Both the position numbers and the translations under genes were made by a program. From a virus: a DNA stretch of 32,771 nt. Every line of letters begins with the position of its first letter. Position 1 is the first letter of the stretch. Below the pieces are notes generated by a model. It saw nothing but the letters and a program-made list of their open reading frames with translations. It was not told where the DNA came from and searched no databases. Shown here in pieces: positions 386-22,184 of the stretch. The stretch lies in the IMG/VR virus record IMGVR_UViG_3300042311_001491, positions 1-32,771 of that record; one strand, given 5' to 3'.

Positions 386-1348
386 TCAATACGAACTAAA
401 CATTTTAATATACTTAGCAAAAAACGCTCTTCTTGTAACAGAGTAAGCTTTTTTAATATCGTTAAACTCAAACTGATTTACAATACTTGCTGCTAATATT
501 CTTTCATTTCTTAAATTGGTTTCAACTCTCTGTTGTAAATTTTGACTAACAGAATAACCTTTTTCTTCAGCCAATTCAATCGCTTTAGATTTTAAGTAGT
601 ATTCATAAAAAGAATTAATCAAATCATGATCCAAAACTAAAAGGTCCCCTTCATCGTTTTCCATCATACCTTCATAATTCAAATACATTGTTCCATTGGT
701 AATAGAAGAAAAAATAAAATTTCCTCTTATACTTACGTTATTAAAGCTTTTAAAACTTTTAGTAAAACAATATTCAGAATCTTCAACCGCAGGAGAATTT
801 ACTAACTTTAACGGTATAAGTTCTTTGTGAACTCTTACATGACTATTGTATTCTTGAACAATAACGGTTGCATTTCCTTTACAATCAATTTTAACTCTAT
901 CGCTTGGAACACACATGCAATTAGTATAAGGTGTATGACAATCACTACAAGAATCATTATGTGAACACGGAGTACATGTTTCTAGATCAATTTCCGGAGG
1001 AGCAGGTAAACAAATATCAACATGTTCCGCATTTGGGTTAAAGTTTGGAACTGGAACTACTAAAGTTTGAACTAAAGTAGGTCTAGGTAAAACTTCGGTA
1101 AATGAATTCATCATAAAAGCAAAATTAAATGTATCAAAATCAGATGGTAATTTTCCTTTACCGTTTCTAATTTCCACAGTACGCTGCTTTGTTTGATTTA
1201 ATTTTAAACCTAAAAATGAATTTACATACTTAGCATGTTTGATGAAATCTTGAGGATCAATCATTCCATCAGAATCCATTGTAGAAAAATCACTTTTTAA
1301 CTCAGCCATTAAAGAATCAAAAGTTCTATATTTTATTTTATATGACAT
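386..1348 (-). CDS. Virion connector / tail-ring-like protein with Cys-rich insert
   Basis: 320 residues. The N-terminus (TFDSLMAELKSDF, then IDPQDFIKHAKYVNSFLGLK, then a K/R..VEI.NGKGKLPSDF segment) follows a pattern I associate with head-tail connector or ring proteins of crAss-like and other Bacteroidota phages. A compact cysteine cluster lies at about residues 125-146, with CTPC, CSDC and CMC motifs. It looks like a metal-binding or disulfide knob inserted into the fold. The C-terminal third is helical and charged. The gene lies 3 bases after the 239-residue gene (1352-2071), which has a related architecture, and they are probably made together. Exact role unproven; the virion assignment rests on position and pattern. 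Confidence 0.6.
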   Translation of the reverse strand: MSYKIKYRTFDSLMAELKSDFSTMDSDGMIDPQDFIKHAKYVNSFLGLKLNQTKQRTVEIRNGKGKLPSDFDTFNFAFMMNSFTEVLPRPTLVQTLVVPVPNFNPNAEHVDICLPAPPEIDLETCTPCSHNDSCSDCHTPYTNCMCVPSDRVKIDCKGNATVIVQEYNSHVRVHKELIPLKLVNSPAVEDSEYCFTKSFKSFNNVSIRGNFIFSSITNGTMYLNYEGMMENDEGDLLVLDHDLINSFYEYYLKSKAIELAEEKGYSVSQNLQQRVETNLRNERILAASIVNQFEFNDIKKAYSVTRRAFFAKYIKMFSSY

Positions 1349-1351
1349 TTT

Positions 1352-2071
1352 TTATCGCATTATATTTTGTGCATTATCCGAAGTATCTGAAGGAATTTGC
1401 GCATTCCCCATTAAATCTTGTCTTACCATTCCAAGAATGTCTGCAACTAAATCATCTGAATATGGTGCAAAATCATCTTGACGGTAAGTACATTTGGGTT
1501 TGTTTAATTCAGTACACTCTTTACAATCAGCTAACTCTTCTGTTTCCAAACAATAACCTACTACATTTTCTTCGAAACAAGCTTGAACCGTAACAGCAGA
1601 CCAATTAACATTAGGGAAATATAAATATCCACCCTTTTCCCAAAAATATTTAACCTTATTATATTTAAAGTTTACCGATTTAGTTATTTCATGAAACTTT
1701 AATAAAGTAATTTGTTCAACTTTTTCTGAGGTATCTACAGAAAAAACTAATTTTATCAAAGATCCTTTATCCACTTGCAACATCTTAGGTAATTTAAACC
1801 TTGTTCTTTTATAAGTACATTCCGTTTTAACTCCTAAACAATCTGCTTCAATTTTATCAACATCAATTAGTTGCACAACAGGCAACCATTGAAATGCAGA
1901 ATCTCCTTTCATTAATTTTTTCTCATTATACTTTCTTCTAATTAATACATCTCCGTATTTTTTAAAAATGCTGTAGAGAAAATTATCGGTTACGAAAGCA
2001 TCTTCGTTATGAAGTTTATATAAACCTCTTATTTCAGATACAATGCTGCGTATAGTTCTATTATTTTCCAT
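1352..2071 (-). CDS. Putative tail adaptor / connector protein
   Basis: 239 residues. The N-terminal segment (RSIVSEIRGLYKLHNEDAFV, then a tyrosine- and lysine-rich helix with LIRRKYNEKKL) is of a type seen in structural connector proteins of phages of Bacteroidota, in which a short helical region precedes a beta-rich body. Near the C-terminus is a CKEC...C motif at about residues 187-197, another instance of the cysteine enrichment seen across this gene cluster. It sits between the 157-residue gene and the 320-residue connector-like gene, with 8- and 3-base gaps, so it is in the same transcript. Function is inferred from position; no enzymatic motif is visible. Confidence 0.55.
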   Translation of the reverse strand: MENNRTIRSIVSEIRGLYKLHNEDAFVTDNFLYSIFKKYGDVLIRRKYNEKKLMKGDSAFQWLPVVQLIDVDKIEADCLGVKTECTYKRTRFKLPKMLQVDKGSLIKLVFSVDTSEKVEQITLLKFHEITKSVNFKYNKVKYFWEKGGYLYFPNVNWSAVTVQACFEENVVGYCLETEELADCKECTELNKPKCTYRQDDFAPYSDDLVADILGMVRQDLMGNAQIPSDTSDNAQNIMR

Positions 2072-2079
2072 TTTTTATT

Positions 2080-2553
2080 TTATCTTTTGTACGTTAAACA
2101 ATTCGTCCAATTATCTTTAAACCAATCGCTACACTTTTTCTTAAAGCTTTTTTTCGGATAAAAAGAATAAAGCTCATTGTTTTCAACATTGGTTGGAAGT
2201 ATTTTATTTAAATACATAATTTTCATTAAATTATTTTCTGTACCAAAATTTAAATGAAATATCCTTTTGTTGTATTTTTTAGATGCAGCAAAATCAATTG
2301 CTTGTTTTTTATTTTCTCCACAATTATTTAAAAAGATAACAGCAAAATTTTCAGGAAGAATAACTCCATATGGATTTCTCTGAAGTTCTTTTATTATTTC
2401 TTCTTGTACTAATAACAACAATCTTTTGAATTCTGTAACTGAATTAATTTTATTAGAATATTCCGGATATTCTTTAATAAACTTTTGATACTGAAGTCTT
2501 TCAAATACAGAAACAAATCTTTTAGTTTTTCTAATTTTTACTGAAGAGTTCAT
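2080..2553 (-). CDS. Conserved phage protein of unknown function
   Basis: 157 residues, basic (many Lys and Arg), with no membrane segment and no signal peptide. It starts with a Lys/Arg-rich stretch, then a helix (LLLLVQEEIIKELQRN), the motif PYGVILPENFAVIFLNN, a central 'AIDFAASKKYNKRIFHLNFGTENNLMKI' type region, and a basic tail. I recall proteins of this pattern next to structural genes in phages of Bacteroidota, but no function is known to me. It begins a transcription unit: a terminator lies at 2591-2619 and a TATTTTTG -7-like element at 2577-2584, about 24 bases upstream of the ATG. The basic charge could mean nucleic acid binding; that is a guess. Confidence 0.6.
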   Translation of the reverse strand: MNSSVKIRKTKRFVSVFERLQYQKFIKEYPEYSNKINSVTEFKRLLLLVQEEIIKELQRNPYGVILPENFAVIFLNNCGENKKQAIDFAASKKYNKRIFHLNFGTENNLMKIMYLNKILPTNVENNELYSFYPKKSFKKKCSDWFKDNWTNCLTYKR

Positions 2554-2576
2554 AGATTAAAATACTGATTTTAAAT

Positions 2577-2584
2577 CAAAAATA
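2577..2584 (-). promoter_or_regulatory. Putative Bacteroidota-type promoter, -7 element
   Basis: On the minus strand this reads TATTTTTG, a perfect match to the Bacteroidota -7 consensus TAnnTTTG. It lies just downstream of the terminator at 2591-2619 and 24 bases before the ATG of the gene at 2080-2553. No TTG is found at the usual -33 distance, so it would be weak or need an activator. Confidence 0.4.
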
Positions 2585-2590
2585 CAAATA

Positions 2591-2619
2591 AAAAGCGGAC
2601 CTATTACAGATCCGCTTTT
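2591..2619 (-). terminator. Rho-independent terminator after collagen-like gene
   Basis: Arms at 2591-2601 and 2609-2619 form an 11-bp stem with one G-U pair and a 7-base loop. In minus-strand RNA it is followed by a U-rich run. It lies about 35 bases after the stop codon of the collagen-like gene (2655-3350). Confidence 0.85.
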
Positions 2620-2654
2620 ATTCAAACTACACACAAACCAAAGTAGTATTGAAT

Positions 2655-3350
2655 TTATAACTTTCTTAAAAAACCTTTAACTGATTGTAATGAGAATCCG
2701 GGAACGTTTAAATTCCTAATTAATACTCTTAGCGTATCTCCTGATACAACGTTTGGAATAATAAAATGCATTGTTTTTGAGTTTAATGATGGGTCCAATT
2801 CAAAAACAATAAACGGAGTAATAATGGGAGTTCCAACTGGATATAATCCGTTAATACCCACACCTACTTGAATTTTACTATTTGGATCTTCATCGGTACA
2901 ACAAAAATCTATTGTCCAAATAAATGTACCAGCACTTAATGTAGTATGTTCCATAATAGGATAACCCAATGGTACTCCAACATCTGACCAATCTGTATGA
3001 GTTATATTGGTGACGGTAACATCTCCGCTACCAAAATAAGTATGTAGTTCTGGAGTATATACAGGACCGGCCGGACCTTGAGGTCCCGGTAAACCATCGA
3101 CTCCATTTACTCCAGGTACACCTTGTGGTCCAATAGGACCTGGTACACCTTGTGGTCCAATAGGACCTTGAGGACCTGTTAATCCAATAGGACCTTGTGG
3201 ACCTGGAGTTCCGTTTGTTCCGGAAACTCCGTTTGTTCCAGGAAGTCCTTGTGGACCAATTGGTCCTTGAGGTCCTACGGGTCCACGTGGTCCTCGTTCA
3301 CCACGCAATCCTTTATTTTCAGAACCGCAACTTGAACATGTATCTCCCAT
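2655..3350 (-). CDS. Collagen-like fibre protein with C1q/TNF-like head
   Basis: 231 residues. After a short cysteine-containing N-terminus (CSSC at residues 5-8) come 28 uninterrupted Gly-X-Y triplets (about residues 14-97), rich in GPQ, GPI and GVP. This is the signature of a collagen-like triple helix. The rest (about 98-231) is beta-rich and looks like a small trimeric globular head of the C1q/TNF type: it has evenly spaced hydrophobic strands and ends 'SVKGFLRKL'. Collagen-like stalks with trimeric heads are known in phage tail and head fibres. The CSSC at the base might cross-link or bind metal. It is followed by a strong terminator, so it probably closes a transcription unit with the 514-residue protein upstream. 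Whether it sits on the capsid or the tail cannot be read from sequence. Confidence 0.8.
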
Positions 3351-3361
3351 TTTAATATTTA

Positions 3362-4906
3362 TTAAATAATTATTGGATCCGTTGTTGTAATATTAACTTG
3401 AGTAGTAGCAATTAAATTTGTTACATTTGCATGCATGGTTTGATTTGCTACTAAATCACTAAGCAGATTTATGTTTACAGCTACTGCCGAATTAATAGAT
3501 TTTCCAGGACCTATATTATAAATTTCAGTATCTTTTAATTGTAGATCGATAGTGGCATCTTGAAGATCCAGTCCATGTGAAGTAATAGCTGGACTATAAT
3601 TCTTTAATCGACTGTCGTTAAATAATATTTTGTTAGTACCTGTTGTTTTATTTAAAGTAGCTACTGAAACATCTAACACGTTACTAATTTTAACTAATGT
3701 AGATTGATCAATTACCCCAATAACATCTGCCCCATCATTTAATACCAATAAAGGTTGTCCATCACAAATAATTTCAGAATCTTTTATTTTAAATTTAACA
3801 TCTCCTCCAGAAACTCCAATAAGAATACCATAATCAAAATTAGTAATCTTTCCACTATAAGTTAAATTTCCTGAGTCTTGTCTTATTGCTGGAATTAAAG
3901 GTGAAACAGAACCATCTATGTTTAATCCACTTAAATCAATATTAACATTTGGAGAATTCTCAATCATTACCGCAGCATTATTTGAAGCATTTGTGCTTAA
4001 GTTTCCTTTAATTACGATTGGAGAATTTATATTTGTTAAGTTTCTTAAATAAATAGGATTTTGTTGTAAAACAGTATTTCCTTGATAATCGTCAACATCC
4101 ATTACTCCAGCAGAACCTCCTCTAATTGTAGCAATATACTGATTAGTACCAGATAAAACTTTTCCTTTAAATCTAAACTCAAAACAATCAGATAAAGTTA
4201 TTCCATCTTGTGCTCCTGACATTAAATCAAACTCAACATCAATTCGACTACCAGCGTTTTGTAAAAAAACTACTCCTCCAATTCCAGGGTTAGTAGTTAT
4301 AAATCTACCGTTTCCTCTTACGTAATAATTAACTGCTGTAACTGGATCATCTACAAAACAATTATTAGGACAAATAACTGCAGTATTCTCATAAAAGTAA
4401 TATTTTACTTGAGAAGCAAATGGATTGTTTCCTTCAGAGTAAACTCCCGGATAAACAAAAACTTGATCATTTGGTAAAGCTGCCGCTTTTGCTGCTGCAA
4501 GTGTAAGAAAATGTTTATCAAATCTAGTTCTTAAAGCCGTTGCATCATTACCTAATTTAGAAACAAATAAAGTATTTTGAACAATAACTTCAGAAGGTCC
4601 AATGGGTCCTTGAGGTCCAACCGCACCAGCAGGTCCAGCTGGTCCAACGGGTCCTATTGCTCCAGCTGGACCTGCTGGTCCTTGTGGTCCTGGAAGTAAT
4701 TGTAAATTACATCCAAAAGTAGCCATGTTAATAAACGCTTCTTCTAAAGTCATTCCTTGTGTAACAAATATATTTTCATCACAACCTATAGGTTCTCCAG
4801 TCCAAACAAATGAAGCCATTGGAAAAGCGTAAGATGGTCCTGAATTATTTGGTTTAACGCATTTACAATCGTTATGACATTTTTTACAAATAGTGCAATC
4901 GTCCAT
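3362..4906 (-). CDS. Collagen-like / beta-helix fibre or tailspike-like protein
   Basis: 514 residues in three parts. Residues 1-16 hold five cysteines (pattern C..C..C...C.C). About 30-70 has an FVWTG..I.C...I.VTQG.T.EEA segment resembling the N-terminal part of the 166-residue protein (6257-6757), a likely shared attachment domain. About 70-105 has 11 Gly-X-Y triplets. From about 115 to the end comes a long region opening with '[24 protein letters not shown]' type sequence and '[10 protein letters not shown]', followed by repetitive short beta-strands with regular Asn and Gly turns. This is typical of right-handed beta-helix (pectate-lyase-like) tailspikes. Such a protein would recognise or depolymerise a surface glycan, but I cannot point to catalytic residues. 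It precedes the collagen-like gene by 11 bases. Confidence 0.75.
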
Positions 4907-4921
4907 TTTTAAAAAGTTTAA

Positions 4922-5587
4922 TTAATTTAATAAAGAGTTAGCTTCAGCAAAAGATCCAAATGAAGCAACTGATCCTATATACATATCACAGTCAAAACAT
5001 TTTATTACAAGACCTTCTGTAAATATAGCTGTAAAGAAAGATCCTATTTCTGTAGGAGTTACGTTTTCTAAAATCAAGTAATCCAATAATATTCGTAAAC
5101 CACTTGCCCCATTAAAAGTAGAAGCTTCTACTATACTTAAATTGGGAAAAGCTACAGTTATGTTTGAATTTTCTAATAATAATGTAACAGCTTCGGCAAA
5201 ACTAGAATCACAACAAGGAGGCTCCAAATTAGCAAAAGTTGTTTCATAATCAACAGCATCCGTAACGTTTAGACTATGATTCAAACAACAAGGATATTTA
5301 ACTCCGGGTGTTGTTGATGGAGGAGTAGGTATTGTTTGTAGAAACAAGGTTGCTAAAATTTTATAATCAGCATAAGATCCTAAAAAATAATAACCTTTTT
5401 TTGACGTACAATCAGGACAACATAAAGTTCCAGAATTAGATAAAACTATTCCGTTTGATAATATTGTAGTCAACTCTTGAGCTAAACTACTTCTCGTTGC
5501 TACAGCCAATCTAGCTTTAGCTTTTTTGTATAAATCAATTAAAGGATTTATACAATCACTCATAGGTGAACAACATTCTTTATTCAT
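4922..5587 (-). CDS. Cys-rich presumed virion protein, tandem paralogue A
   Basis: 221 residues, the same length as its neighbour at 5589-6254 and clearly its paralogue. Both carry 12 cysteines in nearly the same order (Cys-Cys near the N-terminus, a lone Cys, CCP.C, CC, CC, C.DC) and share the motifs 'CCP.C......G.YFLG' and 'G.VIKC.DC...IG'. The protein also looks internally duplicated: an N-terminal unit (about residues 38-77, 'GIVLSNSGTLCCPDC' then 'YYFLG') and a C-terminal unit (about 184-215, 'GLVIKCFDC' then 'MYIG') follow the same plan of helix, Gly-Val/Leu, a C..C pair, Gly, helix. CxxC pairs suggest zinc-ribbon knuckles or disulfides. I recognise no named family. The setting among fibre genes implies a virion part; function unknown. 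Confidence 0.65.
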   Translation of the reverse strand: MNKECCSPMSDCINPLIDLYKKAKARLAVATRSSLAQELTTILSNGIVLSNSGTLCCPDCTSKKGYYFLGSYADYKILATLFLQTIPTPPSTTPGVKYPCCLNHSLNVTDAVDYETTFANLEPPCCDSSFAEAVTLLLENSNITVAFPNLSIVEASTFNGASGLRILLDYLILENVTPTEIGSFFTAIFTEGLVIKCFDCDMYIGSVASFGSFAEANSLLN

Positions 5588-5588
5588 C

Positions 5589-6254
5589 TTACAAAAGTAT
5601 ATTCATTATTGATACTACGTTTTCAGGTATACCAATAGATATTTTACAATCATTACACTTAATAACAACACCTGTTGTAAGAAGCGATATTAAAATAGAA
5701 TGAATGTATTCTTCATCAGCATATGGTTTTTCTTCTAAAATTAAATTAACGATTTGATTTAATGAAGTTAAACCATTTAACGTAGATATTTCTACAACTC
5801 CCAAATTTAATAAATCGGTAAAACTAGGATACTTTTCAAATAAAGTTTTAAGTTCAGTAAATAACAGTGTATCGCAACATTCAATTGAATTTTGAATTTG
5901 ATCTAATAACTCTTCAATATCTACTGATGAAGTTAAAGATGCTTGGTATGTAGTGCAACAAGGAATATCTCCAGTAAAAGAAGGCCAAGAAGTTAAAGAT
6001 GTAACTAATAAATTTAAAGAAGTTAAGTTTCCTAAAAAATATAAACCAGCATCATCGACACAATTTGGACAACAAAGAAGTCCATCTTTTTTTGATACAA
6101 ATCCTTCAGTTAAAATATTTGTTAAAACAGTTCCCACAGCAACCCCAGAAGATTCAGATTCTCTAACAGCAAGACCCACAATATACGCAACTGGATTTAA
6201 ACAATTAGTTGTAATGGATCCAATTGGGATAATATTTTCATTTCCGCAACACAT
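5589..6254 (-). CDS. Cys-rich presumed virion protein, tandem paralogue B
   Basis: 221 residues and 12 cysteines, paralogous to the product of 4922-5587, which starts 1 base after this gene ends. Shared landmarks are the N-terminal CC, a Cys-Leu/Ile-Asn-Pro segment, 'LLCCPNC' followed by 'GLYFLG' (about residues 72-90), two further CC pairs, a 'VVEISTLNG' segment matching 'IVEASTFNG' in the other copy, and a C-terminal 'GVVIKCNDC' followed by 'ISIG'. As in the partner, the N- and C-terminal thirds repeat the same C..C-Gly unit. The two copies differ at most other positions, so the duplication is old. A hetero-oligomer of the two is possible. No family name recognised. Confidence 0.65.
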   Translation of the reverse strand: MCCGNENIIPIGSITTNCLNPVAYIVGLAVRESESSGVAVGTVLTNILTEGFVSKKDGLLCCPNCVDDAGLYFLGNLTSLNLLVTSLTSWPSFTGDIPCCTTYQASLTSSVDIEELLDQIQNSIECCDTLLFTELKTLFEKYPSFTDLLNLGVVEISTLNGLTSLNQIVNLILEEKPYADEEYIHSILISLLTTGVVIKCNDCKISIGIPENVVSIMNILL

Positions 6255-6256
6255 AG

Positions 6257-6757
6257 TTATCCTATTAAAGTTTGAACTTGATCATTTAACTGAGTAACTA
6301 AGTCTGTTAAATTTTCAACCGATTCTTGTAACAAATCTATTTGAGTAGCTTGTGAGCAAATAGTATTTCCCAAAAATTGAACATACTCATTAATATTAAT
6401 AACTTCAGCTCCCAATGTTTCTTGAAAACATTCTGCTACTGAAACAGTTAATGATGTATTATCGGTTCCAATAACTACTTCTGATGAACAACAGTTGTTA
6501 ATTTTATTAATAAGCAATTGGATAACTTCAATAAGTTTTTCAGGAGGACATTCTTTTTCTCCCAAAAGATCACCAAAGTCTAAAGATTCAATGCTTATCG
6601 CTTGATGAATATCTTTTAATTTTTTTCCAATTTTTTTAATTACATCTTCAATTGTGTCACCATCGCATATCTCAATACAATAAACTTTTCCTCCAGTCCA
6701 AATAATACACTTGGAAGGAGTTTTAACACAAGGTAAATCTTTATCAAATAATCCCAT
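6257..6757 (-). CDS. Cys-containing tail/baseplate-like protein with coiled-coil end
   Basis: 166 residues, nine cysteines. The N-terminal segment 'CIIWTGGKVYCIEICDGDTIEDVI' type sequence (about residues 17-40) is a pattern I associate with N-terminal domains of tail or fibre proteins in phages of Bacteroidota. It is echoed in the 514-residue fibre protein ('FVWTG..I.C....FVTQG.TLEEAF'). The last 45 residues have hydrophobics in heptad register (ICSQATQIDLLQESVENLTD and onward) and probably form a trimeric or dimeric coiled coil. It lies 2 bases before the Cys-rich paralogue pair and 16 bases after the 250-residue Cys-rich gene. It probably attaches the fibres; inference from domain sharing and position. 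Confidence 0.6.
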   Translation of the reverse strand: MGLFDKDLPCVKTPSKCIIWTGGKVYCIEICDGDTIEDVIKKIGKKLKDIHQAISIESLDFGDLLGEKECPPEKLIEVIQLLINKINNCCSSEVVIGTDNTSLTVSVAECFQETLGAEVININEYVQFLGNTICSQATQIDLLQESVENLTDLVTQLNDQVQTLIG

Positions 6758-6773
6758 ATCTATAAAATACTAA

Positions 6774-7526
6774 TTAATTTTGGTCTATGCAAGGAATTCC
6801 TGTTGGAGTTTGAGTAAACCCTGAAACAGAAGGTCCTATAAAAGTTAATAAATTGTATGAATTAACACAAACGCAAATAGTTCTCACTAAAGGAACCAAA
6901 GTGTTAATATTTTCAGTAATAGTTTCATTGTTACAATTTACATAAGATAATACTCCAACAGAGTTTGCTGTAAAAGATAAATTTACGTTTACGCAAGGAG
7001 GACAACATGCGCGATTATCCATTGTCCTTTCTCTTATCAGTATCTGATACTCAACAATAGATTTCATTGGATCAACTGGACAACATAAACTAATTCCTTC
7101 CATGCGTTCCATTGCATCTCTCCAATAATGTTTAACAAAGTTTTTAATTATTGGATAACAAGGATCAGGTTCTTTTTCAATAAACAAATTATTTAAAACA
7201 ATATGCGGAACTTCTTTTGGTTCAGGTAAACAATCTTTACAACAATCAAAAATATCAAGAGTAACGAAAAAAGTTTTCCATTGAACTATTTTATACAAAA
7301 CCGGATCACATGTTTTGGTAACATCAATAAGTTCGTAACAACCAGTGGTTTTATTTTTTGAAATATTCTCAATGTTTGATAATACTTTTTTAATTAATTT
7401 ATCAGGAATATTATCATTGTAATATTCTCCATTAAATTCAAAAACAATTATTTGTCGATTCACCTCTAAAGGTTTTTTAGAAGTACAACATACTAATTGA
7501 TAATATTCCAATTTTTCTAAAAGCAT
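6774..7526 (-). CDS. Cysteine-rich protein of unknown function, presumed virion
   Basis: 250 residues with 17 cysteines (about 7%), many as adjacent pairs or CxxC: CC at residues 13-14, FDCCKDC in the middle, LCCPV, ACCPPC and CVC towards the end. The N-terminal half is helix- and strand-mixed ('QIIVFEFNGEYYND'), and the C-terminal part is beta-rich, ending in a Gly/Thr/Pro-rich tail. There is no signal peptide or membrane segment. It follows the 61-residue zinc-ribbon gene by 2 bases and precedes the 166-residue coiled-coil gene, so it belongs to the presumed tail-fibre transcript. Intracellular assembly would favour zinc binding; oxidation in free virions could give disulfides. No family recognised. 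Confidence 0.55.
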   Translation of the reverse strand: MLLEKLEYYQLVCCTSKKPLEVNRQIIVFEFNGEYYNDNIPDKLIKKVLSNIENISKNKTTGCYELIDVTKTCDPVLYKIVQWKTFFVTLDIFDCCKDCLPEPKEVPHIVLNNLFIEKEPDPCYPIIKNFVKHYWRDAMERMEGISLCCPVDPMKSIVEYQILIRERTMDNRACCPPCVNVNLSFTANSVGVLSYVNCNNETITENINTLVPLVRTICVCVNSYNLLTFIGPSVSGFTQTPTGIPCIDQN

Positions 7527-7528
7527 GA

Positions 7529-7714
7529 TTATTGTTTTTTGTTTTTTCTTTTTAAGTCTCTATATGTTAAATTTGGAGAAACCGATAAAAGTTGATCAAT
7601 TTCAACATTTACCTTACTTATACATTTAGAACAACATGTTCTACCATCTTTAGCTTTTACTAAATAAGCTCCTGTACATGTACACGTATTACAATTTGGA
7701 CAAAATGTAGACAT
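7529..7714 (-). CDS. Small zinc-ribbon-like protein
   Basis: 61 residues. Seven cysteines fall in the first half: CPNC..C.C at residues 5-13 and CCSKC at 27-31, separated by a short beta-hairpin-like stretch ('GAYLVKAKDGRT'). This is the layout of a four-cysteine zinc ribbon with extra thiols. The C-terminal half is a basic helix (YRDLKRKNKKQ). It sits between the 187-residue and 250-residue genes with 1- and 2-base gaps and is probably translated with them. It might be a virion component or an assembly factor. It may also be a remnant of the Cys-rich domain found in neighbouring proteins. Function unknown. Confidence 0.6.
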   Translation of the reverse strand: MSTFCPNCNTCTCTGAYLVKAKDGRTCCSKCISKVNVEIDQLLSVSPNLTYRDLKRKNKKQ

Positions 7715-7715
7715 T

Positions 7716-8279
7716 TTAACAAGTTTTACAAGTGAGTTTTCCTAATAGTTCATATGCATAATTATACATCATCATTCCTTTTTTACAGTCACCATCGATT
7801 TCAACAAGAGCTTTTGCTGCTTTTAAATATCCATCTATGGTATTAAGTAAATCAAACTTTTGTTTTGTTTCAAAATCTGGTTCACACGGACCCAAGTTTA
7901 AAGATGCATAAATTTTCTTCAATAATATTTGAGCCTTAACATCGCGTAGATGATACTTCTCATCATACAAAACATTGTTTGGCGCAACAGAATATTGAAT
8001 GGTATAAATACCATCAGGTAAAGGATATTGTTGTAATCCACAATTATCTGTTTGAATATTTAACATACATGCATTTAAATTCAAAACAAATCCTTGTTCT
8101 AAAGCAGGAGTAGTCGTAGTTGTGAATTCAACACATTCGTTAAATCCCGGAAGTTGTATTTGCAAAGAAGCTCCAGAATAAGGAAGCAACGGTTCATATA
8201 CACTAAAGTCTTCAATTCTCAAAACACATTCAACTAATGCATCTGAAATATTTATTTTTATGTTATGTGTTCCACCCAT
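7716..8279 (-). CDS. Putative structural protein of Bacteroidota-phage type
   Basis: 187 residues. The N-terminal half is beta-rich, with the segment 'YPLPDGIYTIQYSVAPNN', followed by 'HLRDVKAQILLKKIYASLNL' and a helical C-terminal part ('FDLLNTIDGYLKAAKALVE') that ends TCKTC. I recall proteins of this plan (a beta domain with 'PDG.Y.I.YS' then helices with 'Y..AAKAL.E') in virion clusters of phages of Bacteroidota, but know no assigned function. It starts a run of seven closely spaced genes down to 2655. A strong terminator lies just upstream (8295-8331), so a promoter is needed in the 15-base interval or some readthrough occurs. I see no clear promoter there. Confidence 0.55.
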   Translation of the reverse strand: MGGTHNIKINISDALVECVLRIEDFSVYEPLLPYSGASLQIQLPGFNECVEFTTTTTPALEQGFVLNLNACMLNIQTDNCGLQQYPLPDGIYTIQYSVAPNNVLYDEKYHLRDVKAQILLKKIYASLNLGPCEPDFETKQKFDLLNTIDGYLKAAKALVEIDGDCKKGMMMYNYAYELLGKLTCKTC

Positions 8280-8350: not shown

Positions 8351-9919
8351 TTAAATTGCTGCGTAAACAAATGGTGTATGAGAACTTGTCAATAAAGAAA
8401 CTTGACTGTTACCAGCTCCTGCCAACCATGCTGCCATAAACGCTTCAAATAAAGCTGTTGTTGGAGATGTTGAACCACTACAAGGAATATAAATATTCAA
8501 TTCGTAATTTTCAGAAGTGAAAGCACTCGAAATGTTTTCTTTAAATGGAATCTCATGACGAATAATAAATCTAGTATACAAACCAGATCTATTAATGTTA
8601 GAAAGCAATTTATCGCCTTGTTCGATTTCACGCAATCTTTGATCTTCAGACCAGTTGTTTGTTCTACGAGGAGCATCATCGATAAACTCACGTAAAACTT
8701 CTTCACCAAAACCTTGACCTGAAAAACCAGTGTGTTCGCAAACAGTACATAATTGATCAATACAAGCTTTTCCAGTTCTGTCAACTAATGCTAAACTTGT
8801 GATTTGAACAGGTTCAACATCAAAACCATCAGAATATTGGAAAGAACAGTTACCGAATTTTGTTTCAACATAAGCTCCTGAAATACGAATACCTGCTAAA
8901 GTACCAGGAATATATCCAGGTGAAACATAGTTATCGAAAATATTTGAAGCTGAATAACCAGCGGCTACAGCTTCAGCTGCAGTTGCAAACCAAGGAACTT
9001 GATTTTGATCGTAAACAATCGGTCTAATAAAATGCATGAAGTAAGGGTTAGAAATAATATCTTTCGCCCATTGTAACATGATTAAAGTAGAATCAATTCT
9101 TTGAGGACCTACCGCTTCAACATCACAACAACCTCCATATGCAGTTACATATCTTGGAACTTTGTTATTTAAAACTGACAAATAAGCAGAACCACCTAAA
9201 GCGATTTGCAAATTATATGTTTCACCACAATAAAACTCGTAGTTACAACCTCCGTATTCATTTAAATCTAGAGTAGCAACTGTTGTTGGTACAGCCGATC
9301 CTTCAACAGTACCTAAAGTAAGTAAATCACCAGTAGTATACCCTGTTCCATTGTCTGATTCTTCTACTGAAAGAACTTCACCACCTGAAATCACAATATC
9401 TACAGTCATTCCGCTACCAGTACCTCCAGTTACAGGAACGTTTTGATAAACTCCATCTGTATAACCAGCACCAGGGTTAGCTGGAGAAAGAGTAGTTGTA
9501 TTTGTAAAATTAGTATTACCAATATGACAAACAGCTACTTCTGGAGCAGCACAAACTATTTTTTCAAAACTAGTAATATACTTAGGATTAATCAGTTTTG
9601 ATTTACTTGACTCTTGATAACCTCCGTGAAAAGGACCAATTTTGTCAACTGAATGAAATGAACTGTTAGCCAAGTATAACATTTTACCACCTGTTACAGC
9701 AGCAGATGCAGCTATTACAGAAGTTCCTACCGTAGGATCAAAGAAACCAAAAGTTCCTGGACCTAAAGCAAAAGGAGCGTTGAGATTTTTAAGTTCTGCT
9801 GAATGAACACCAGCAGTAGTAAGAAATCCAGATTGAACACCAGATTGAACACCTGATGCTACTTGAGTTGGTTTTGACCCTAAATAAGGTTTTCTCCAAT
9901 GAGATAATCTTTCTTGCAT
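8351..9919 (-). CDS. Abundant-type virion protein, unknown (sheath/tube/head candidate)
   Basis: 522 residues. It starts MQERLSHWRKPYLGSKP, followed by a short VQSG tandem repeat. A beta insert at about residues 145-215 ('GAGYTDGVYQNVPVTGGTGS', then 'NGTGYTTGDLLTLG') is a domain type found inserted in structural proteins of large phages. The C-terminal half has 'RRTNNWSEDQRLREIEQGDK' and 'RFIIRHEIPFKENISSAF', and ends in an Ala-rich region. It is transcribed apart from its neighbours, with terminators on both sides (9961-9996 and 8295-8331), as expected for a protein made in large amounts. Candidates are a tail tube, a sheath or a second head protein; I cannot choose. It contains several cysteines (GGCCDVE, CTVCEHTG), unusual for capsid-type proteins. 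Confidence 0.6.
   Translation of the reverse strand: MQERLSHWRKPYLGSKPTQVASGVQSGVQSGFLTTAGVHSAELKNLNAPFALGPGTFGFFDPTVGTSVIAASAAVTGGKMLYLANSSFHSVDKIGPFHGGYQESSKSKLINPKYITSFEKIVCAAPEVAVCHIGNTNFTNTTTLSPANPGAGYTDGVYQNVPVTGGTGSGMTVDIVISGGEVLSVEESDNGTGYTTGDLLTLGTVEGSAVPTTVATLDLNEYGGCNYEFYCGETYNLQIALGGSAYLSVLNNKVPRYVTAYGGCCDVEAVGPQRIDSTLIMLQWAKDIISNPYFMHFIRPIVYDQNQVPWFATAAEAVAAGYSASNIFDNYVSPGYIPGTLAGIRISGAYVETKFGNCSFQYSDGFDVEPVQITSLALVDRTGKACIDQLCTVCEHTGFSGQGFGEEVLREFIDDAPRRTNNWSEDQRLREIEQGDKLLSNINRSGLYTRFIIRHEIPFKENISSAFTSENYELNIYIPCSGSTSPTTALFEAFMAAWLAGAGNSQVSLLTSSHTPFVYAAI
9828..9851. repeat. 12-bp tandem duplication inside the 522-residue virion gene
   Basis: CCAGATTGAACA occurs twice head to tail (9828-9839 and 9840-9851) and encodes the repeated VQSG in the N-terminal region. 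It is a small, recent-looking slippage or duplication event. Confidence 0.8.
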
Positions 9920-9960: not shown

Positions 9961-9996
9961 AAAAAACTAATTATTCATATTTTTAATTAGTTTTTT
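9961..9996 (-). terminator. A/T-rich terminator overlapping the end of the 237-residue gene
   Basis: Arms 9961-9973 and 9984-9996 are perfectly complementary over 13 bp with a 10-base loop. In the minus-strand RNA the stem ends in a run of U. The stem overlaps the last codons and stop (9983-9985) of the upstream gene. The stem is A/T-only except one G-C pair, so termination may be leaky. Confidence 0.6.
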
Positions 9997-10696
9997 CATT
10001 TTGGTTATCATTAAGTTGAGATTGATTATACATCTCCAAAGGTCCTGCTATAAGAGAAGCTGCTTCTTTTATGAAAAGGATGCCTAAATCCGTTTTAAAT
10101 TCACAATCAAAATTACTTGTTGAATAAGTTTGAGTATCTAAATTTAAAACACCAACCTTTTCAACGTTTTTAGGAAAACGATAATAAGTTAGTTTAACAT
10201 TTTCAATATCAAATTCATCGTTGGTATAAATTTTTAATCTGAAATCTTCAAGAGTACAAAAAGTATGACCCCAATTAAAATTAGGTTGTTTAAATTCGTC
10301 TCTTAAATAAAGATCAGCATTTGATTCACCAACTAAAAAACACATCATTTTTAATGGTTTTTCGCAACACTTAGACTTAGCATCAAACTCAATTCGTTTA
10401 AATTCAAAATAATCTGAAAATAATTTTTGAGATAAATAATATCCATCTTTTTTCGCTACAGTTAAGTCTGTAGGCAAAGTTAAGATTTCGTTAAAATCAT
10501 CCAATCTTTTTTTAGTAGATTCATCTCCAGCTTTTAGTACATTTAATCCACTTAAGTTTTTTCGTAACCAGTTTATTCTACCTTCATTGTATGCGGATAT
10601 TATTTTAACATCGGGCAAATTATCAAAATCTTGTGAATCTAATTTATTTAATTTTTCTTTAACCAAATAAAGTATTTTTTCTACGGGAGTGCTCAT
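9983..10696 (-). CDS. Head-tail connector / ring protein
   Basis: 237 residues. The N-terminal helical part ('VEKILYLVKEKLNKLDSQDF', then 'ISAYNEGRINWLRKNLSGLN', then 'GDESTKKRLDDFNEIL') closely follows a pattern I associate with connector or ring proteins of phages of Bacteroidota, usually of the form 'V.EAFN.AQ..WVRRQL.G.N...EG.E.T..RIDDLQ'. The middle and C-terminal parts are beta-rich. It lies downstream of the capsid and head genes, as expected for a protein docking under the portal. It is preceded by a terminator (10713-10734) that ends the small peptide gene. The start MSTPVEKIL is well placed in an A/T-rich leader. Confidence 0.65.
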   Translation of the reverse strand: MSTPVEKILYLVKEKLNKLDSQDFDNLPDVKIISAYNEGRINWLRKNLSGLNVLKAGDESTKKRLDDFNEILTLPTDLTVAKKDGYYLSQKLFSDYFEFKRIEFDAKSKCCEKPLKMMCFLVGESNADLYLRDEFKQPNFNWGHTFCTLEDFRLKIYTNDEFDIENVKLTYYRFPKNVEKVGVLNLDTQTYSTSNFDCEFKTDLGILFIKEAASLIAGPLEMYNQSQLNDNQNEKTN

Positions 10697-12013: not shown

Positions 12014-13651
12014 TTATAATGATCCTCCAGTTATAGGATTTCTCATTACAAATTTCAATAATTTTGTTGGATCTTCTACGAATAAAGCTGGATAAGATTG
12101 CTCCATGTCAACTTGATAACCGTCAAATCTATCAGAAGCTTGGAATCCAGAAGTTCTACCTAAATAATCCATGTTACCATTACGGTATCTCCACATAAAC
12201 TCATTATCAAACTTGTTTCTCAACATTTTGATATTTCCTTTTTTCATTTCTGTAATATCAAAAATGATAAAGCTGTAAGAAGAAAGTCTGTAACCTGTGT
12301 GAAGAATTGGGTTTTCAATATCATTCGCTTCAGTTGGATCTAATGCTGGATTCAATACAAATTTAACATTCGCCAAGAATGGAATTTTGAAACGAGTAAA
12401 CGCGATACCGTAAGATAAATCCATTGATTTACCTTCGATTGCACCGATGTCAGCAGCTTGAATATCCATAGGTTTAGAAAACGCTTTTCTTTCGATTGCA
12501 TCACTAACCAGTTTCATTCCACCTATACCAGTTTGAATAATTAATTCATTCTGAGAATCTGGACCTTTGAAATTAATTCTACCGTTGTAGAAATTAAATA
12601 ATTCAGAATCAAACATGTCTAAAGTGAAATCTTCTAAATTGAAGATATTTTTAAACGAGTTATCAGTTTGTTTCCATAAACCTACAGACAAACGCATTTC
12701 AGATGGAGAACCTGCTTCAGAAGTTATTCTACCTCCTTTACCCCACATAAGGTAATTTTCAATATCAGTAGCAACTTTTTGTATATGAGATTTTTCTAAT
12801 TCTGTAACATACGTTTTAGAAATAGTTCCCTTTTCCAACGCACCTTTCATATACGGTGTTCCAACTAAATTAGCAAAAGCTTCAACAGAACGAATCGACG
12901 GATCATTTTTTGAAAACTTAGGATCATTGGAAATATTCCAAATTTCAGTTACAGGTAACTTACCATCAGAAGTCAATCCTTTTTTCATTACTAATTCCGC
13001 TTTTGATGATACAGAATAACTAGCGTGCGCTCTTGCATTACCTACGTAATTATAAAACTCACGATACTTTCTTGTTGCCATCATATCTGAGAAGTTTTGA
13101 CCTTCTGGAGATTTTGCAGAACCTACTCTAAAGTATTTTGTTCCGTTTCTCAAGAAACGATTATCAAAAACTTTTGTTGAATCAGAATTTACAATAGTAA
13201 CCGTATAAAAAGCATACGTTTGACTATGTGTAATTTCACGAGATACAATGTACAACTCCATACCATTCATTTTATCGTAAGTGATAATATCACCAACTCC
13301 AAATTTTCTCTGGTTTAGCTTAATACGGAAAGGTAAACCATCACGACCTTTGTTTACGTTTGATGGATCTAAGTCTTCCATTGAAACAGGAAGTTCTTCA
13401 GCGATTGGATGTTTCCAAGAATAACGACCATCTGGATCGTCAACATCAATGATGTCAGCTTTATCAAATGATGCCATTGTATACAAAGGAACATCTACTA
13501 ATTTGGATTGTTGAAATAATTCAATAATCCCTAAATCGGTTGGTTTTCTTTCTCCAGCCAATTGGTATAAATGGTTTTCTTGTACGCGAGAATTAACTTC
13601 TAAGTATGTATCTCGTGTGTGAATACCATTGTTTAATACAGGTGTACTCAT
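12014..13651 (-). CDS. Major capsid protein (HK97-fold candidate)
   Basis: 545 residues. Position is the main evidence: it follows terminase, portal and an acidic scaffold-like protein, and a strong terminator comes directly after it. The layout suits an HK97-fold capsid protein: an N-terminal arm, a strand-rich segment with 'YSWKHPIAEELPVS' (about 75-88) that may form the E-loop region, a long spine-helix candidate near 'TYVTELEKSHIQKVATDIEN', and a C-terminal A-domain-like region ('RYRNGNMDYLGRTSGFQASD') ending NPITGGSL. It is longer than the simplest capsid proteins (about 300-400 residues) and near the 490-550 typical of crAss-like phages. Codons in this gene look more G+C-rich and uniform than in its neighbours, consistent with high expression. 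Confidence 0.8.
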   Translation of the reverse strand: MSTPVLNNGIHTRDTYLEVNSRVQENHLYQLAGERKPTDLGIIELFQQSKLVDVPLYTMASFDKADIIDVDDPDGRYSWKHPIAEELPVSMEDLDPSNVNKGRDGLPFRIKLNQRKFGVGDIITYDKMNGMELYIVSREITHSQTYAFYTVTIVNSDSTKVFDNRFLRNGTKYFRVGSAKSPEGQNFSDMMATRKYREFYNYVGNARAHASYSVSSKAELVMKKGLTSDGKLPVTEIWNISNDPKFSKNDPSIRSVEAFANLVGTPYMKGALEKGTISKTYVTELEKSHIQKVATDIENYLMWGKGGRITSEAGSPSEMRLSVGLWKQTDNSFKNIFNLEDFTLDMFDSELFNFYNGRINFKGPDSQNELIIQTGIGGMKLVSDAIERKAFSKPMDIQAADIGAIEGKSMDLSYGIAFTRFKIPFLANVKFVLNPALDPTEANDIENPILHTGYRLSSYSFIIFDITEMKKGNIKMLRNKFDNEFMWRYRNGNMDYLGRTSGFQASDRFDGYQVDMEQSYPALFVEDPTKLLKFVMRNPITGGSL

Positions 13652-20548: not shown

Positions 20549-21392
20549 ATTTTTTTTCTTTGAATGTTTTTAAAAAACTAGAATTTTCTTTTATGAAATT
20601 AATTATGGAAATAGCTTCTCTTTCCATATAATCAACAGGATGTGAAGTTATTGATTTTATAATAGGGTTACCTTGATCGTCTAAATGATAAATAGGGAAA
20701 CCATATTCATCAACTGATTTTGTTTCGAATAAAACATGCTCTAATTTTAAATGTCTAGGTGTCAAATTATAATTATGTTTTCGAATCATATACATGTAAA
20801 TAGAAAGCTGTAGAGAATAATGGATGAAATTACAATCGTCTAAATGTTTTAGAATTCTCAACATTTTTTTACTAACCCCCAATCTGTTTTTAAATCCTTC
20901 AAATTCAAGCTTCTTATTTGTCTTGTGATCATATACATCAATATAATTTTTAATTATTTCAACTCGATCTGACTGACCACAAATTTTTGCCGATTTTAAA
21001 AACATCATGTGTTCCGCATAAATACCTTCAGTCAATTGTTGAGGGATTGATAATTTTTTATCTCCACTCATAATAGGAGGATAAACTGGATAAACCAAAC
21101 CTTCTCTTTCTTGTAGAGGATTGTCAATTAATTGTTTTTCTTTTTTATAATGGTATCTTGACCCTAAATCAGTAGCTCTTTTATTTTCTTTACTCCATAT
21201 ATCTAAAATATCATCAACCGATAAACCAATGTATTTTTTAGTTTTACCTTCCCCCGTAGAACACTTAGATGCAACTTTTCTTTCATCAAACTCTTCAGTA
21301 AAAAGTTCCAATAACGTTGTAACACTTGTCCATTCAATGTTATCACCATCATTGCTTAAATATTTATGTCCTGCTTCAGTAAAATATATCAT
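20538..21392 (-). CDS. PD-(D/E)XK nuclease (RecB/Cas4-like)
   Basis: 284 residues. The opening 'HKYLSNDG', 'SVTTLLELFTEEFDERKVAS' and 'ATDLGSRYHYKKE' (about residues 8-88) match the usual N-terminal plan of RecB-family phage nucleases. Catalytic candidates are the Glu in 'TEGIYAEHMMF', Asp in 'GQSDRVEII', and the core 'DVYDHKTNK' (D.K-type motif IV) at about residues 150-160. They are followed by 'SLQLSIYMYM', the Q...Y helix of this superfamily. All core residues are present, so it should be active. Phages use such enzymes in recombination, DNA-end processing or host DNA breakdown. Linked to packaging genes here; it overlaps both neighbours slightly. Confidence 0.8.
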   Translation of the reverse strand: MIYFTEAGHKYLSNDGDNIEWTSVTTLLELFTEEFDERKVASKCSTGEGKTKKYIGLSVDDILDIWSKENKRATDLGSRYHYKKEKQLIDNPLQEREGLVYPVYPPIMSGDKKLSIPQQLTEGIYAEHMMFLKSAKICGQSDRVEIIKNYIDVYDHKTNKKLEFEGFKNRLGVSKKMLRILKHLDDCNFIHYSLQLSIYMYMIRKHNYNLTPRHLKLEHVLFETKSVDEYGFPIYHLDDQGNPIIKSITSHPVDYMEREAISIINFIKENSSFLKTFKEKKYGK

Positions 21393-21841
21393 AGTCCTTT
21401 TAGTTTTCTGATTTCAAAACGAGCTTCAATTGCTGTTATGGATTTATCTGAAGTAATACTATTCAAAAGAATATTATATTTTTCTTTTGTTATTTCTGAT
21501 GATTCGAATAATTCATCTAACATTTTTTTGTAATTCAATATTATACTTATCTCAACGTTATCATCATCACTTATATATGTAGGCCATTTTCCAGCTTTAC
21601 ATGTATAACTAAGAGATCGAGAAGCTAATTCTAAAGAACAACCACATAAACCACAACAAGGAGCTGTAGCTTTAATAACGCAACTTTTTCCTTCTACATC
21701 TAAATGTTCGCAAGGAGAATTGCAAAAAGTTAATCTTTCTTTTGCAATTTCTTCAACAGTATCATTAGTAAAAACTTTATTTCTTATTCCCTCCAGAATT
21801 TTCTTTTTGTTCTGCCAAACGGTTATTATATTTTTGCTCAT
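21389..21841 (-). CDS. Small zinc-binding protein with CC..CGC motif
   Basis: Start taken at Met 21841; an ATG at 21859 gives 6 more residues. The sequence has 'ILEGIRNKVF', a leading 'VEEIAKERLTFCNSPC', then 'CCGLCGCSLELASRS' and a final Cys before 'GKWPT'. About eight cysteines in this order suggest a zinc-ribbon or knuckle. I recall the same pattern (R..iC..C, then CC..CGC.L..K.RS, then C....W) in small proteins of Bacteroidota phages, with no function known to me. The C-terminal part is helical. The gene overlaps the upstream HU-like gene by 65-83 bases in another frame, which is unusual. It overlaps the nuclease gene by 4 bases. Confidence 0.6.
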   Translation of the reverse strand: MSKNIITVWQNKKKILEGIRNKVFTNDTVEEIAKERLTFCNSPCEHLDVEGKSCVIKATAPCCGLCGCSLELASRSLSYTCKAGKWPTYISDDDNVEISIILNYKKMLDELFESSEITKEKYNILLNSITSDKSITAIEARFEIRKLKGL

Positions 21842-22184
21842 ATTTCTCATTTTCTTCATGTAATTTTTTCAATCCTCTTTTTAAAAGCAATACTCTAGTT
21901 TCAGTTAAATATCTGCTTTTAGCTTTATGATTTCTAGAAATTCTTTCACTTAATGCGATCTCAAGTCTTTTGATCAGTTCAGTTAATTTTCTTTCAGATA
22001 AAACTAATCTACCCAAACCTAAAAGAATTATGTTTGGAGATTTTAATGTTTTAACATGATGATAAACATTTTTATAATAAGTCTCAGTTATATCCATTAG
22101 CATCTTAGGATCTATATCTTTTTCAGCAGCAACTTTATTAACTAAATGTTTTACTTTAGTTGATGATTCAAATTTACGACTCAT
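21777..22184 (-). CDS. HU/IHF-like DNA-binding protein candidate
   Basis: 135 residues. The segment 'IDPKMLMDITETYYKNVYHH' then 'KTLKSPNIILLGLGRLVLSE' (about 22-65) fits the HU/IHF plan: two helices, then a beta part starting 'p.I.l.glG.f'. After that the protein is helical and basic ('ETRVLLLKRGLKKLHEENEK') with a Lys/Asn tail. The flexible DNA-bending arm of HU is not obvious. crAss-like phages encode IHF-like subunits near packaging genes, which fits this location. The 3' end overlaps the zinc-binding gene by up to 83 bases. It starts 11 bases inside the end of the winged-helix-like gene. Confidence 0.5.
   Translation of the reverse strand: MSRKFESSTKVKHLVNKVAAEKDIDPKMLMDITETYYKNVYHHVKTLKSPNIILLGLGRLVLSERKLTELIKRLEIALSERISRNHKAKSRYLTETRVLLLKRGLKKLHEENEKYEQKYNNRLAEQKENSGGNKK

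What the first reader, a model, noticed from the sequence alone, without database searches (positions are those of the whole stretch)
386..7714. Cysteine-rich virion gene cluster
Eight neighbouring genes that lie among connector and fibre genes encode proteins with CxxC, CC or C.C clusters: nine Cys in the 320-residue protein (six in a short window), 12 each in the 221-residue paralogues, 17 in the 250-residue protein, nine in the 166-residue protein, seven in 61 residues, and five in the first 16 residues of the fibre at 3362-4906. Phage virion proteins usually have few cysteines. A shared scheme, either zinc knuckles made in the cytoplasm or disulfides formed in released virions, may stabilise a whole tail or fibre assembly. 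I know of no described phage appendage built like this.
Basis: partly seen in the sequence, partly recalled or inferred. Interest (0 to 1): 0.75.

Follow-up and report, generated by a model that had tools for sequence, protein, structure and literature searches.

The report
Cysteine-rich tail module of environmental crassviruses
A block of genes in this uncultured phage encodes a tail collar and tail fibres unusually rich in the amino acid cysteine, probably so that sulphur cross-links can hold the tail together outside the cell; a smaller-scale version of this trick has already been seen in the gut phage crAss001, but the very cysteine-rich fibre proteins found here are undescribed.

Summary
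In detail: genes at 386-8279 encode 3.86% Cys (99/2567 residues) against 1.06% elsewhere, with CC and CxxC pairs in excess. The window is an environmental crassvirus relative (Crass_capsid, CrAss_Ring_1 and _2 families). The cluster sits between major capsid/connector genes and ring proteins R2/R1, where ΦcrAss001 encodes its fibre-docking hub. The 187-residue protein at 7716-8279 has the fold of the crassvirus tail-hub protein THA. The Cys pattern is conserved: several new families recur in related loci, three of them in more than 100, one averaging about 720 residues with 46 conserved Cys positions. Published cryo-EM of ΦcrAss001 shows disulfides joining hub, R1 and R2, so 'no described phage appendage built like this' is not correct in kind. 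Disulfides are the best explanation for most proteins: Cys are lost in pairs, are not replaced by His, and one relative carries thrombospondin type-1 domains. One member, the 61-residue protein, looks like a zinc ribbon instead (C-to-H swaps at a single ligand position). So: one shared tail module, two cysteine chemistries. No disulfide or zinc was observed directly. Verdict: real, clade-wide, a new variant of a known kind.

The parts
386..1348 (-). Ring protein R1 homologue (320 aa) with an inserted Cys-rich segment (residues about 113-156) absent from gut crassvirus R1
   Evidence: PF24228 CrAss_Ring_1 E=4e-5 in the window (below the Pfam cut-off); relatives exceed the cut-off (46.6 and 34.8 bits against 27); alignment with crAss001 gp43 and other gut R1 shows the insert; 10 conserved Cys columns in 67 sequences
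1352..2071 (-). Ring protein R2 homologue (239 aa, 7 Cys)
   Evidence: PF25702 CrAss_Ring_2 E=1.7e-20; C-terminal Cys pair conserved from gut crassviruses to this clade
2080..2553 (-). 157 aa; homologues in about 70 loci; in the position of crAss001 gp42 (HU/IHF-like), position only
   Evidence: tblastn and gene order
2655..3350 (-). Collagen-repeat fibre (231 aa) with N-terminal CSSC and a CC pair
   Evidence: PF01391 E=4.6e-16; no homologue among the fetched loci by filtered tblastn
3362..4906 (-). Collagen-repeat fibre (514 aa), five Cys in the first 16 residues, followed by a degenerate W-T-G-x-x-I-x-C motif
   Evidence: sequence; PHROG tail-fibre matches over the collagen stretch; Cys positions
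4922..5587 (-). 221-aa Cys-rich protein, paralogue 1 (new family, CCPxC signature)
   Evidence: 12 Cys columns conserved in 9 sequences
5589..6254 (-). 221-aa Cys-rich protein, paralogue 2
   Evidence: 32% identical to paralogue 1, all 12 Cys shared
6257..6757 (-). 166-aa protein with the Cys-Trp domain (C..W.G..I.C...C.GDT..DV); the same N-terminal domain heads proteins of up to 1274 aa in relatives
   Evidence: alignment; at least 574 viral contigs; no confident Pfam or PHROG match
6774..7526 (-). 250-aa, 17-Cys protein; short member of the repeat family that reaches 887 aa in relatives
7529..7714 (-). 61-aa small protein with zinc-ribbon signature CxxC...CxC...[C/H]xxC
   Evidence: homologues in 129 loci; all four substitutions at one ligand column are His; weak sequence and fold matches are mostly zinc domains
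7716..8279 (-). 187-aa probable tail-hub protein (THA, crAss001 gp38-like), 8 Cys, C-terminal CxxC
   Evidence: AlphaFold2 pLDDT 92.8; Foldseek hits phi17:2 structural protein E=1.1e-10 and a cr128_1 protein taken to be its gp38 homologue E=2.5e-3, prob 1.00; phi4:1 counterpart found by MS/MS
8351..9919 (-). [quoted passage not shown] identity by position only
   Evidence: homologue of phi17:2 gp63 / phi4:1 gp61, the latter found by MS/MS; profile comparison with gp36 negative
9983..10696 (-). Ring/connector protein in the R3/R4 position
   Evidence: PHROG 29507 virion structural protein E=1.5e-7; homologue of phi17:2 gp64 / MS/MS-detected phi4:1 gp62
12014..13651 (-). Major capsid protein, no Cys
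   Evidence: PF23898 Crass_capsid E=7e-22

Best explanation
The cluster is the tail-hub and tail-fibre module of an environmental crassvirus relative. The 187-aa protein (THA) forms the docking collar on rings R1 and R2; the Cys-Trp, 221-aa, 250-aa and collagen-repeat proteins are fibres or fibre-attachment subunits docked to it. Most cysteines form structural disulfides, inside the fibre subunits and between hub, ring and fibre subunits, as in phage crAss001. Since no phage-encoded thioredoxin or glutaredoxin was found, they probably form after lysis or under host redox control. The 61-aa subunit instead binds zinc and probably acts as an adaptor next to the hub. Shown here: gene identity and order, conservation, Cys patterns, hub fold. 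Inferred: disulfide formation, zinc occupancy, the docking arrangement, and stability as the benefit.
For: Crass_capsid and ring proteins R1/R2 flank the cluster. The gene order capsid - ring - auxiliary - THA - ... - R2 - R1 matches crAss001. THA fold match. crAss001 virions have disulfides between hub proteins, hub and rings, and R1 and R2 (PMC10172136); its THA has 11 Cys in 215 aa. The R2 C-terminal Cys pair is conserved across both groups. Cys columns are conserved: 46 in the repeat family, 12 in the 221-aa family, 13 in the Cys-Trp domain, 9 in THA, 10 in R1. Outside the small protein, only 7 of 756 substitutions at Cys columns are His, the background rate. Cys are lost in pairs, not fours: repeat-family columns 1133/1179 lost together in 30 sequences and singly in 2; R3 columns 35/218 17 against 1; most tree-corrected contrasts agree in direction. 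One relative has three TSP1 domains, a disulfide fold (E=9e-33). In the small protein 4 of 4 substitutions at one position are His. No thioredoxin or glutaredoxin in 22 related records. Phi4:1 counterparts of the auxiliary, ring and hub proteins detected by MS/MS.
Against: No disulfide or zinc was observed in this clade. Profile comparison of the hub family with crAss001 gp38 was negative and no crAss001 chain appeared among the 50 listed PDB fold matches; the link to gp38 rests on the cr128_1 homologue and gene order. The repeat unit has an odd number of Cys (5) and a C-x2-C...C-x2-C spacing that could also bind zinc. The co-loss pairs were picked from the same data, so their significance is inflated, and two control pairs showed no clear direction. 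TSP1 domains occur in only 1 of 27 genomes searched, not in the window.
Confidence: 0.66

Rival explanations
1. Most of the proteins are zinc-knuckle proteins folded in the reducing cytoplasm; zinc, not disulfides, stabilises the fibres.
For: CxxC and CCxxC motifs abound. The small protein has a convincing zinc-ligand signature. The repeat unit has C-x2-C...C-x2-C spacing in many copies. Phages assemble in the cytoplasm and no thioredoxin or glutaredoxin is encoded.
Against: His replaces Cys at the background rate in all families but the small one (7 of 756). Losses come in pairs rather than fours. The spacing of the two Cys before Trp varies between x1, x2 and x3. CC pairs are common. The only solved relative uses disulfides (PMC10172136).
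Confidence: 0.17
2. Mixed or partly non-structural use: a few conserved disulfides, while the rest of the Cys are metal-scavenging, adhesive or redox-switch residues that act on contact with the host.
For: Odd Cys numbers per repeat and per family leave possible unpaired thiols. Hosts and receptors are unknown.
Against: The very high conservation of nearly all positions (most above 90% in the repeat family) suggests structure rather than loose binding.
Confidence: 0.12
3. The Cys richness is a compositional by-product or a chance run in one genome.
For: None beyond the small size of the window.
Against: Same genes, same Cys columns in more than 100 loci; the neighbouring capsid genes lack Cys.
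Confidence: 0.01

Closest known systems
Fibre-docking hubs and tail barrel of Bacteroides phage crAss001 (THA gp38, THB gp39, R1 gp43, R2 gp40; Structural atlas of a human gut crassvirus, PMC10172136)
   Same: Same gene order around it, homologous R1 and R2, THA-like fold with a Cys-rich C-terminus; disulfides are the published stabiliser there.
   Different: Here the Cys-rich scheme extends to the fibre or fibre-attachment proteins themselves (up to 57 Cys in one protein in relatives), R1 carries an extra Cys-rich insert, a zinc-ribbon-like protein sits in the THB position, and the fibres are encoded next to THA rather than after the portal. No THB homologue was found.
Cellulophaga phages phi4:1 and phi17:2 (Lightbulbvirus) structural module
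   Same: Homologous auxiliary, ring and hub proteins, detected in phi4:1 virions by MS/MS; small Cys-containing proteins follow the hub gene.
   Different: Their distal fibres are Cys-poor and no Cys-Trp or repeat-family gene was found.
Leptolyngbya phage Lbo-JY46
   Same: Closest annotated portal (27.5% identity over the full length); has a Cys-Trp domain protein and homologues of THA and the auxiliary protein.
   Different: No small zinc-ribbon or repeat-family homologue detected; lower overall Cys content.
Thrombospondin type-1 repeats (Pfam TSP1_spondin, TSP_1)
   Same: Found in one relative's module protein that bears a Cys-Trp-like motif (L075:17927-19609).
   Different: Not present in the window and in only 1 of 27 genomes searched.

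Membership tests
Crassvirales-like phage | Crassvirus-type major capsid protein | tested here: met
   PF23898 E=7e-22, 77.9 bits against cut-off 27
Crassvirales-like phage | Multiple ring protein genes (R1, R2, R3/R4) | tested here: met
   R2 above the Pfam cut-off; R1 above it in relatives, below it in the window; R3/R4 by position and MS/MS-detected homologue
Crassvirales-like phage | Membership in one of the named ICTV families | tested here: inconclusive
   Best annotated portal relative 27.5% identity (Lbo-JY46), gut crassviruses about 20-23%; no whole-genome classification was done
crAss001-type disulfide-stabilised docking hub | THA (gp38) homologue | tested here: met
   Foldseek to the cr128_1 protein taken as its gp38 homologue, E=2.5e-3, prob 1.00, TM about 0.5; sequence-profile test negative, so a moderate result
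crAss001-type disulfide-stabilised docking hub | THB (gp39) homologue | tested here: not met
   The profile of the 61-aa family does not find gp39; the 61-aa protein takes its place in gene order only
crAss001-type disulfide-stabilised docking hub | Conserved Cys in R2 | tested here: met
   C-terminal Cys pair aligned across gut and environmental R2; which bonds they make in gp40 was not readable in the paper text
crAss001-type disulfide-stabilised docking hub | Disulfides in the virion | not testable with these tools
   Needs virions
Zinc-ribbon protein (61-aa gene) | Two CxxC-type knuckles with C/H exchange | tested here: met
   Columns 12, 15, 45 are 100% Cys; column 42 is 96% Cys and otherwise His only, in 101 sequences
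Zinc-ribbon protein (61-aa gene) | Significant match to a known zinc fold | tested here: inconclusive
   Best sequence E=0.012 (GATA); fold E=0.45 (RING); weak hits mostly zinc domains, none significant
Thrombospondin type-1 repeat protein | TSP1 domain in the window proteins | tested here: not met
   Absent from the window; present only in L075

The most novel reading that the evidence does not exclude
A widespread group of environmental crassviruses builds its whole fibre apparatus from densely disulfide-cross-linked proteins, including one of about 720 residues with 46 conserved cysteine positions, so that tail fibres made as reduced chains in the cytoplasm harden by oxidation after lysis, with a zinc-ribbon adaptor fixing them to the hub before that.
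Probability: 0.3. Interest if true: 0.78.

Novelty: new variant of a known kind. Interest (0 to 1): 0.58.

Why it matters
Phage tail proteins are usually thought of as Cys-poor because they fold in a reducing cytoplasm. This clade shows a conserved and large-scale departure in a very common environmental phage group (at least 574 viral contigs carry the Cys-Trp domain). It extends the published crAss001 disulfides from hub and rings to whole fibres and poses a testable question: when and how do the bonds form. It also supplies four unnamed protein families (Cys-Trp domain, repeat family, 221-aa family, small zinc-ribbon protein) for annotation.

Tried and rejected
Single-protein scans of viral contigs with the 221-aa and 250-aa proteins, and tblastn in annotated phages with these and the 166-aa protein, found nothing; even the strongest relatives' versions give no hit in annotated phages. 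A division of the clade into Cys-rich and Cys-poor lineages was dropped: it came from the 10-kb flanks. Longer contigs of 'poor' phages carry the Cys-Trp gene further downstream, after inserted Cys-poor fibres. Profile comparison of the hub with gp38 and of the 522-aa protein with gp36 was negative. PDB fold search with the hub gave only weak beta-sandwich matches. The Evr1_Alr search was uninformative because its controls did not ring. The MAG contigs with the Cys-Trp domain look like binned phage contigs (L183 also carries R2), not host genes. Literature searches found no earlier description of a Cys-rich crassvirus fibre module; the library lacks most subscription journals.
Full report
OBSERVATION. 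Genes 386-8279 encode 99 Cys in 2567 residues, 3.86%, against 1.06% in the other genes of the window (p = 7e-18). The clustering of rich genes is reached in 105 of 20,000 gene-order shuffles. CC and CxxC are three to four times commoner than in shuffled proteins; CxC is not.

WHAT THE PHAGE IS. The window is a 32.8-kb virus record. Its major capsid protein is a Crass_capsid protein (E=7e-22), its portal and terminase match portal and terminase PHROGs, and the last two genes of the cluster are ring proteins R2 (CrAss_Ring_2, E=1.7e-20) and R1 (CrAss_Ring_1, E=4e-5, below the cut-off here but above it in relatives). The nearest annotated portal is that of Leptolyngbya phage Lbo-JY46 at 27.5% identity; gut crassviruses and Cellulophaga phages follow at about 20-23%. 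It is therefore a relative of Crassvirales outside the well-studied gut families. The viral collection holds at least 583 contigs with a related capsid gene and at least 574 with the Cys-Trp domain.

WHERE THE CLUSTER SITS. Reading with the genes, the order is capsid, 341-aa, ring (R3/R4 position), 522-aa (auxiliary position), 187-aa, 61-aa, 250-aa, 166-aa, two 221-aa, two collagen fibres, 157-aa, R2, R1. In phage crAss001 the order is capsid, gp33, gp34 and gp35 (rings), auxiliary, THA, THB, R2, gp42, R1. The cluster thus lies at the hub position, with fibre genes inserted. The 187-aa protein was modelled with high confidence (pLDDT 92.8): a beta-rich N-terminal part followed by three long helices. 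Its fold matches the phi17:2 structural protein (E=1.1e-10) and a 167-residue protein of phage cr128_1 (E=2.5e-3, probability 1.00). That protein has the length of the cr128_1 homologue of crAss001 gp38, and I take the two to be the same. By sequence profile alone the link is not detectable, so I call this a probable THA.

VIRION EVIDENCE. In Cellulophaga phi4:1 the counterparts of the 522-aa (gp61), ring (gp62) and 187-aa (gp56) proteins, and the small Cys-containing proteins that follow (gp55, gp54), are annotated as structural from experimental MS/MS (correspondence through phi17:2). gp54 and gp55 correspond to window genes by position only. The 61-aa, 166-aa, 221-aa and 250-aa families have no direct proteomic evidence.

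CONSERVATION OF CYSTEINES. Over all fetched loci, which partly overlap, the small protein occurs in 129, THA in 135, the Cys-Trp domain in 107 and the 250-aa (repeat) family in 107. Numbers of columns with at least 60% Cys: repeat family 46, Cys-Trp 13, 221-aa family 12, R1 10, THA 9, small 6, R2 4. The window's 250-aa protein is a short member of the repeat family: the family has a median of 719 residues and 7.3% Cys, and 93 members contain mostly three or four copies of a repeat of about 62 residues, YxLxxC...DLSxYVGxVI...C-x(1-3)-CW...F..CxxC. The Cys-Trp domain heads proteins from 166 to 1274 residues whose distal parts differ and may carry fn3 domains, as expected of an attachment domain with exchangeable ends. 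In 68 loci with THA and the R2-side genes both present, the stretch between them has a median of 92 Cys, overall 5.45%; these loci were partly chosen by the Cys-Trp domain, so they are not a random sample.

A CORRECTION MADE ON THE WAY. Within 10 kb of the capsid gene the clade seemed to split into Cys-rich and Cys-poor lineages. Longer records show that the 'poor' ones carry extra Cys-poor fibres next to THA and in many cases keep a Cys-Trp gene further on. The split is not a real presence/absence pattern.

DISULFIDE OR ZINC. [quoted passage not shown] Its THA has 11 Cys in 215 residues and a CGC near its C-terminus. R2 keeps a C-terminal Cys pair across gut and environmental phages, and R1 of this clade has a Cys-rich insert absent from gut R1. 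Sequence tests point the same way. Zinc ligands exchange between Cys and His; in the small protein all four substitutions at one ligand column are His, whereas in all other families His makes up 7 of 756 substitutions, the background rate. Disulfides are lost in pairs; the strongest co-losses are pairs, e.g. 30 joint against 2 single losses in the repeat family while the other Cys stay, and contrasts on family trees for the selected pairs go the same way, though they are few and the pairs were chosen beforehand. One relative's module protein contains three thrombospondin type-1 domains, a disulfide fold. No thioredoxin or glutaredoxin was found in 22 related records, so if disulfides form they are likely spontaneous after lysis or host-assisted. 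Against this, the repeat has five Cys and a spacing that zinc could also use.

MECHANISM, WITH STATUS. (1) Hub protein on rings R1/R2: fold and order shown, docking inferred from crAss001. (2) Fibres attach through Cys-Trp and related domains: inferred. (3) Disulfides stabilise hub, ring and fibre: inferred, well supported by the relative. (4) The small protein binds zinc: inferred from C/H exchange. (5) Benefit is stability outside the cell: inference only.

COMPARISON AND NOVELTY. The principle, a disulfide-stabilised crassvirus tail, is known. New are the extension to whole fibre families, the scale of Cys use, the R1 insert, the zinc-ribbon-like companion, and the breadth across environmental phages. 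I rate it a new variant of a known kind.

Noticed in passing
21389-21859: A 156-aa protein with eight clustered Cys (CxxxC...CCGLCGC) lies upstream of the terminase genes, outside the cluster; homologues in 60 loci keep about eight Cys and one is in Lbo-JY46. No family match.
   Followed up: partly
L075:17927-19609: Phage module protein with three thrombospondin type-1 domains (TSP1_spondin E=9e-33), one fn3 domain and a Cys-Trp-like motif; rare (1 of 27 genomes searched).
   Followed up: partly
24372-25328: Protein with a GGGIRG...GTSTGA patatin-like phospholipase motif (PHROG 25573, unknown function).
   Followed up: no
22824-23480: Probable HNH-type endonuclease with two CxxC pairs.
   Followed up: no
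small proteins of L035, L042, L059, L068, L072, L083, L088, L092 (e.g. L092:17126-17329): Several relatives' small zinc-ribbon proteins share a C-terminal peptide close to WGxDRYxNLxKF, seen in loci that have the long repeat-family protein; it may be a docking peptide.
   Followed up: no
L180-L183: Cys-Trp domain genes in MAG contigs labelled Chitinophagaceae, Campylobacteraceae, Sphingomonadaceae and Pseudomonadales; probably phage contigs binned with bacteria (L183 also has ring protein R2).
   Followed up: partly
L193 (G003:C1:37000-56500): Some relatives have large Cys-poor fibres inserted between the hub/small genes and the Cys-Trp gene, making the module about 24 kb from capsid gene to R2.
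   Followed up: partly
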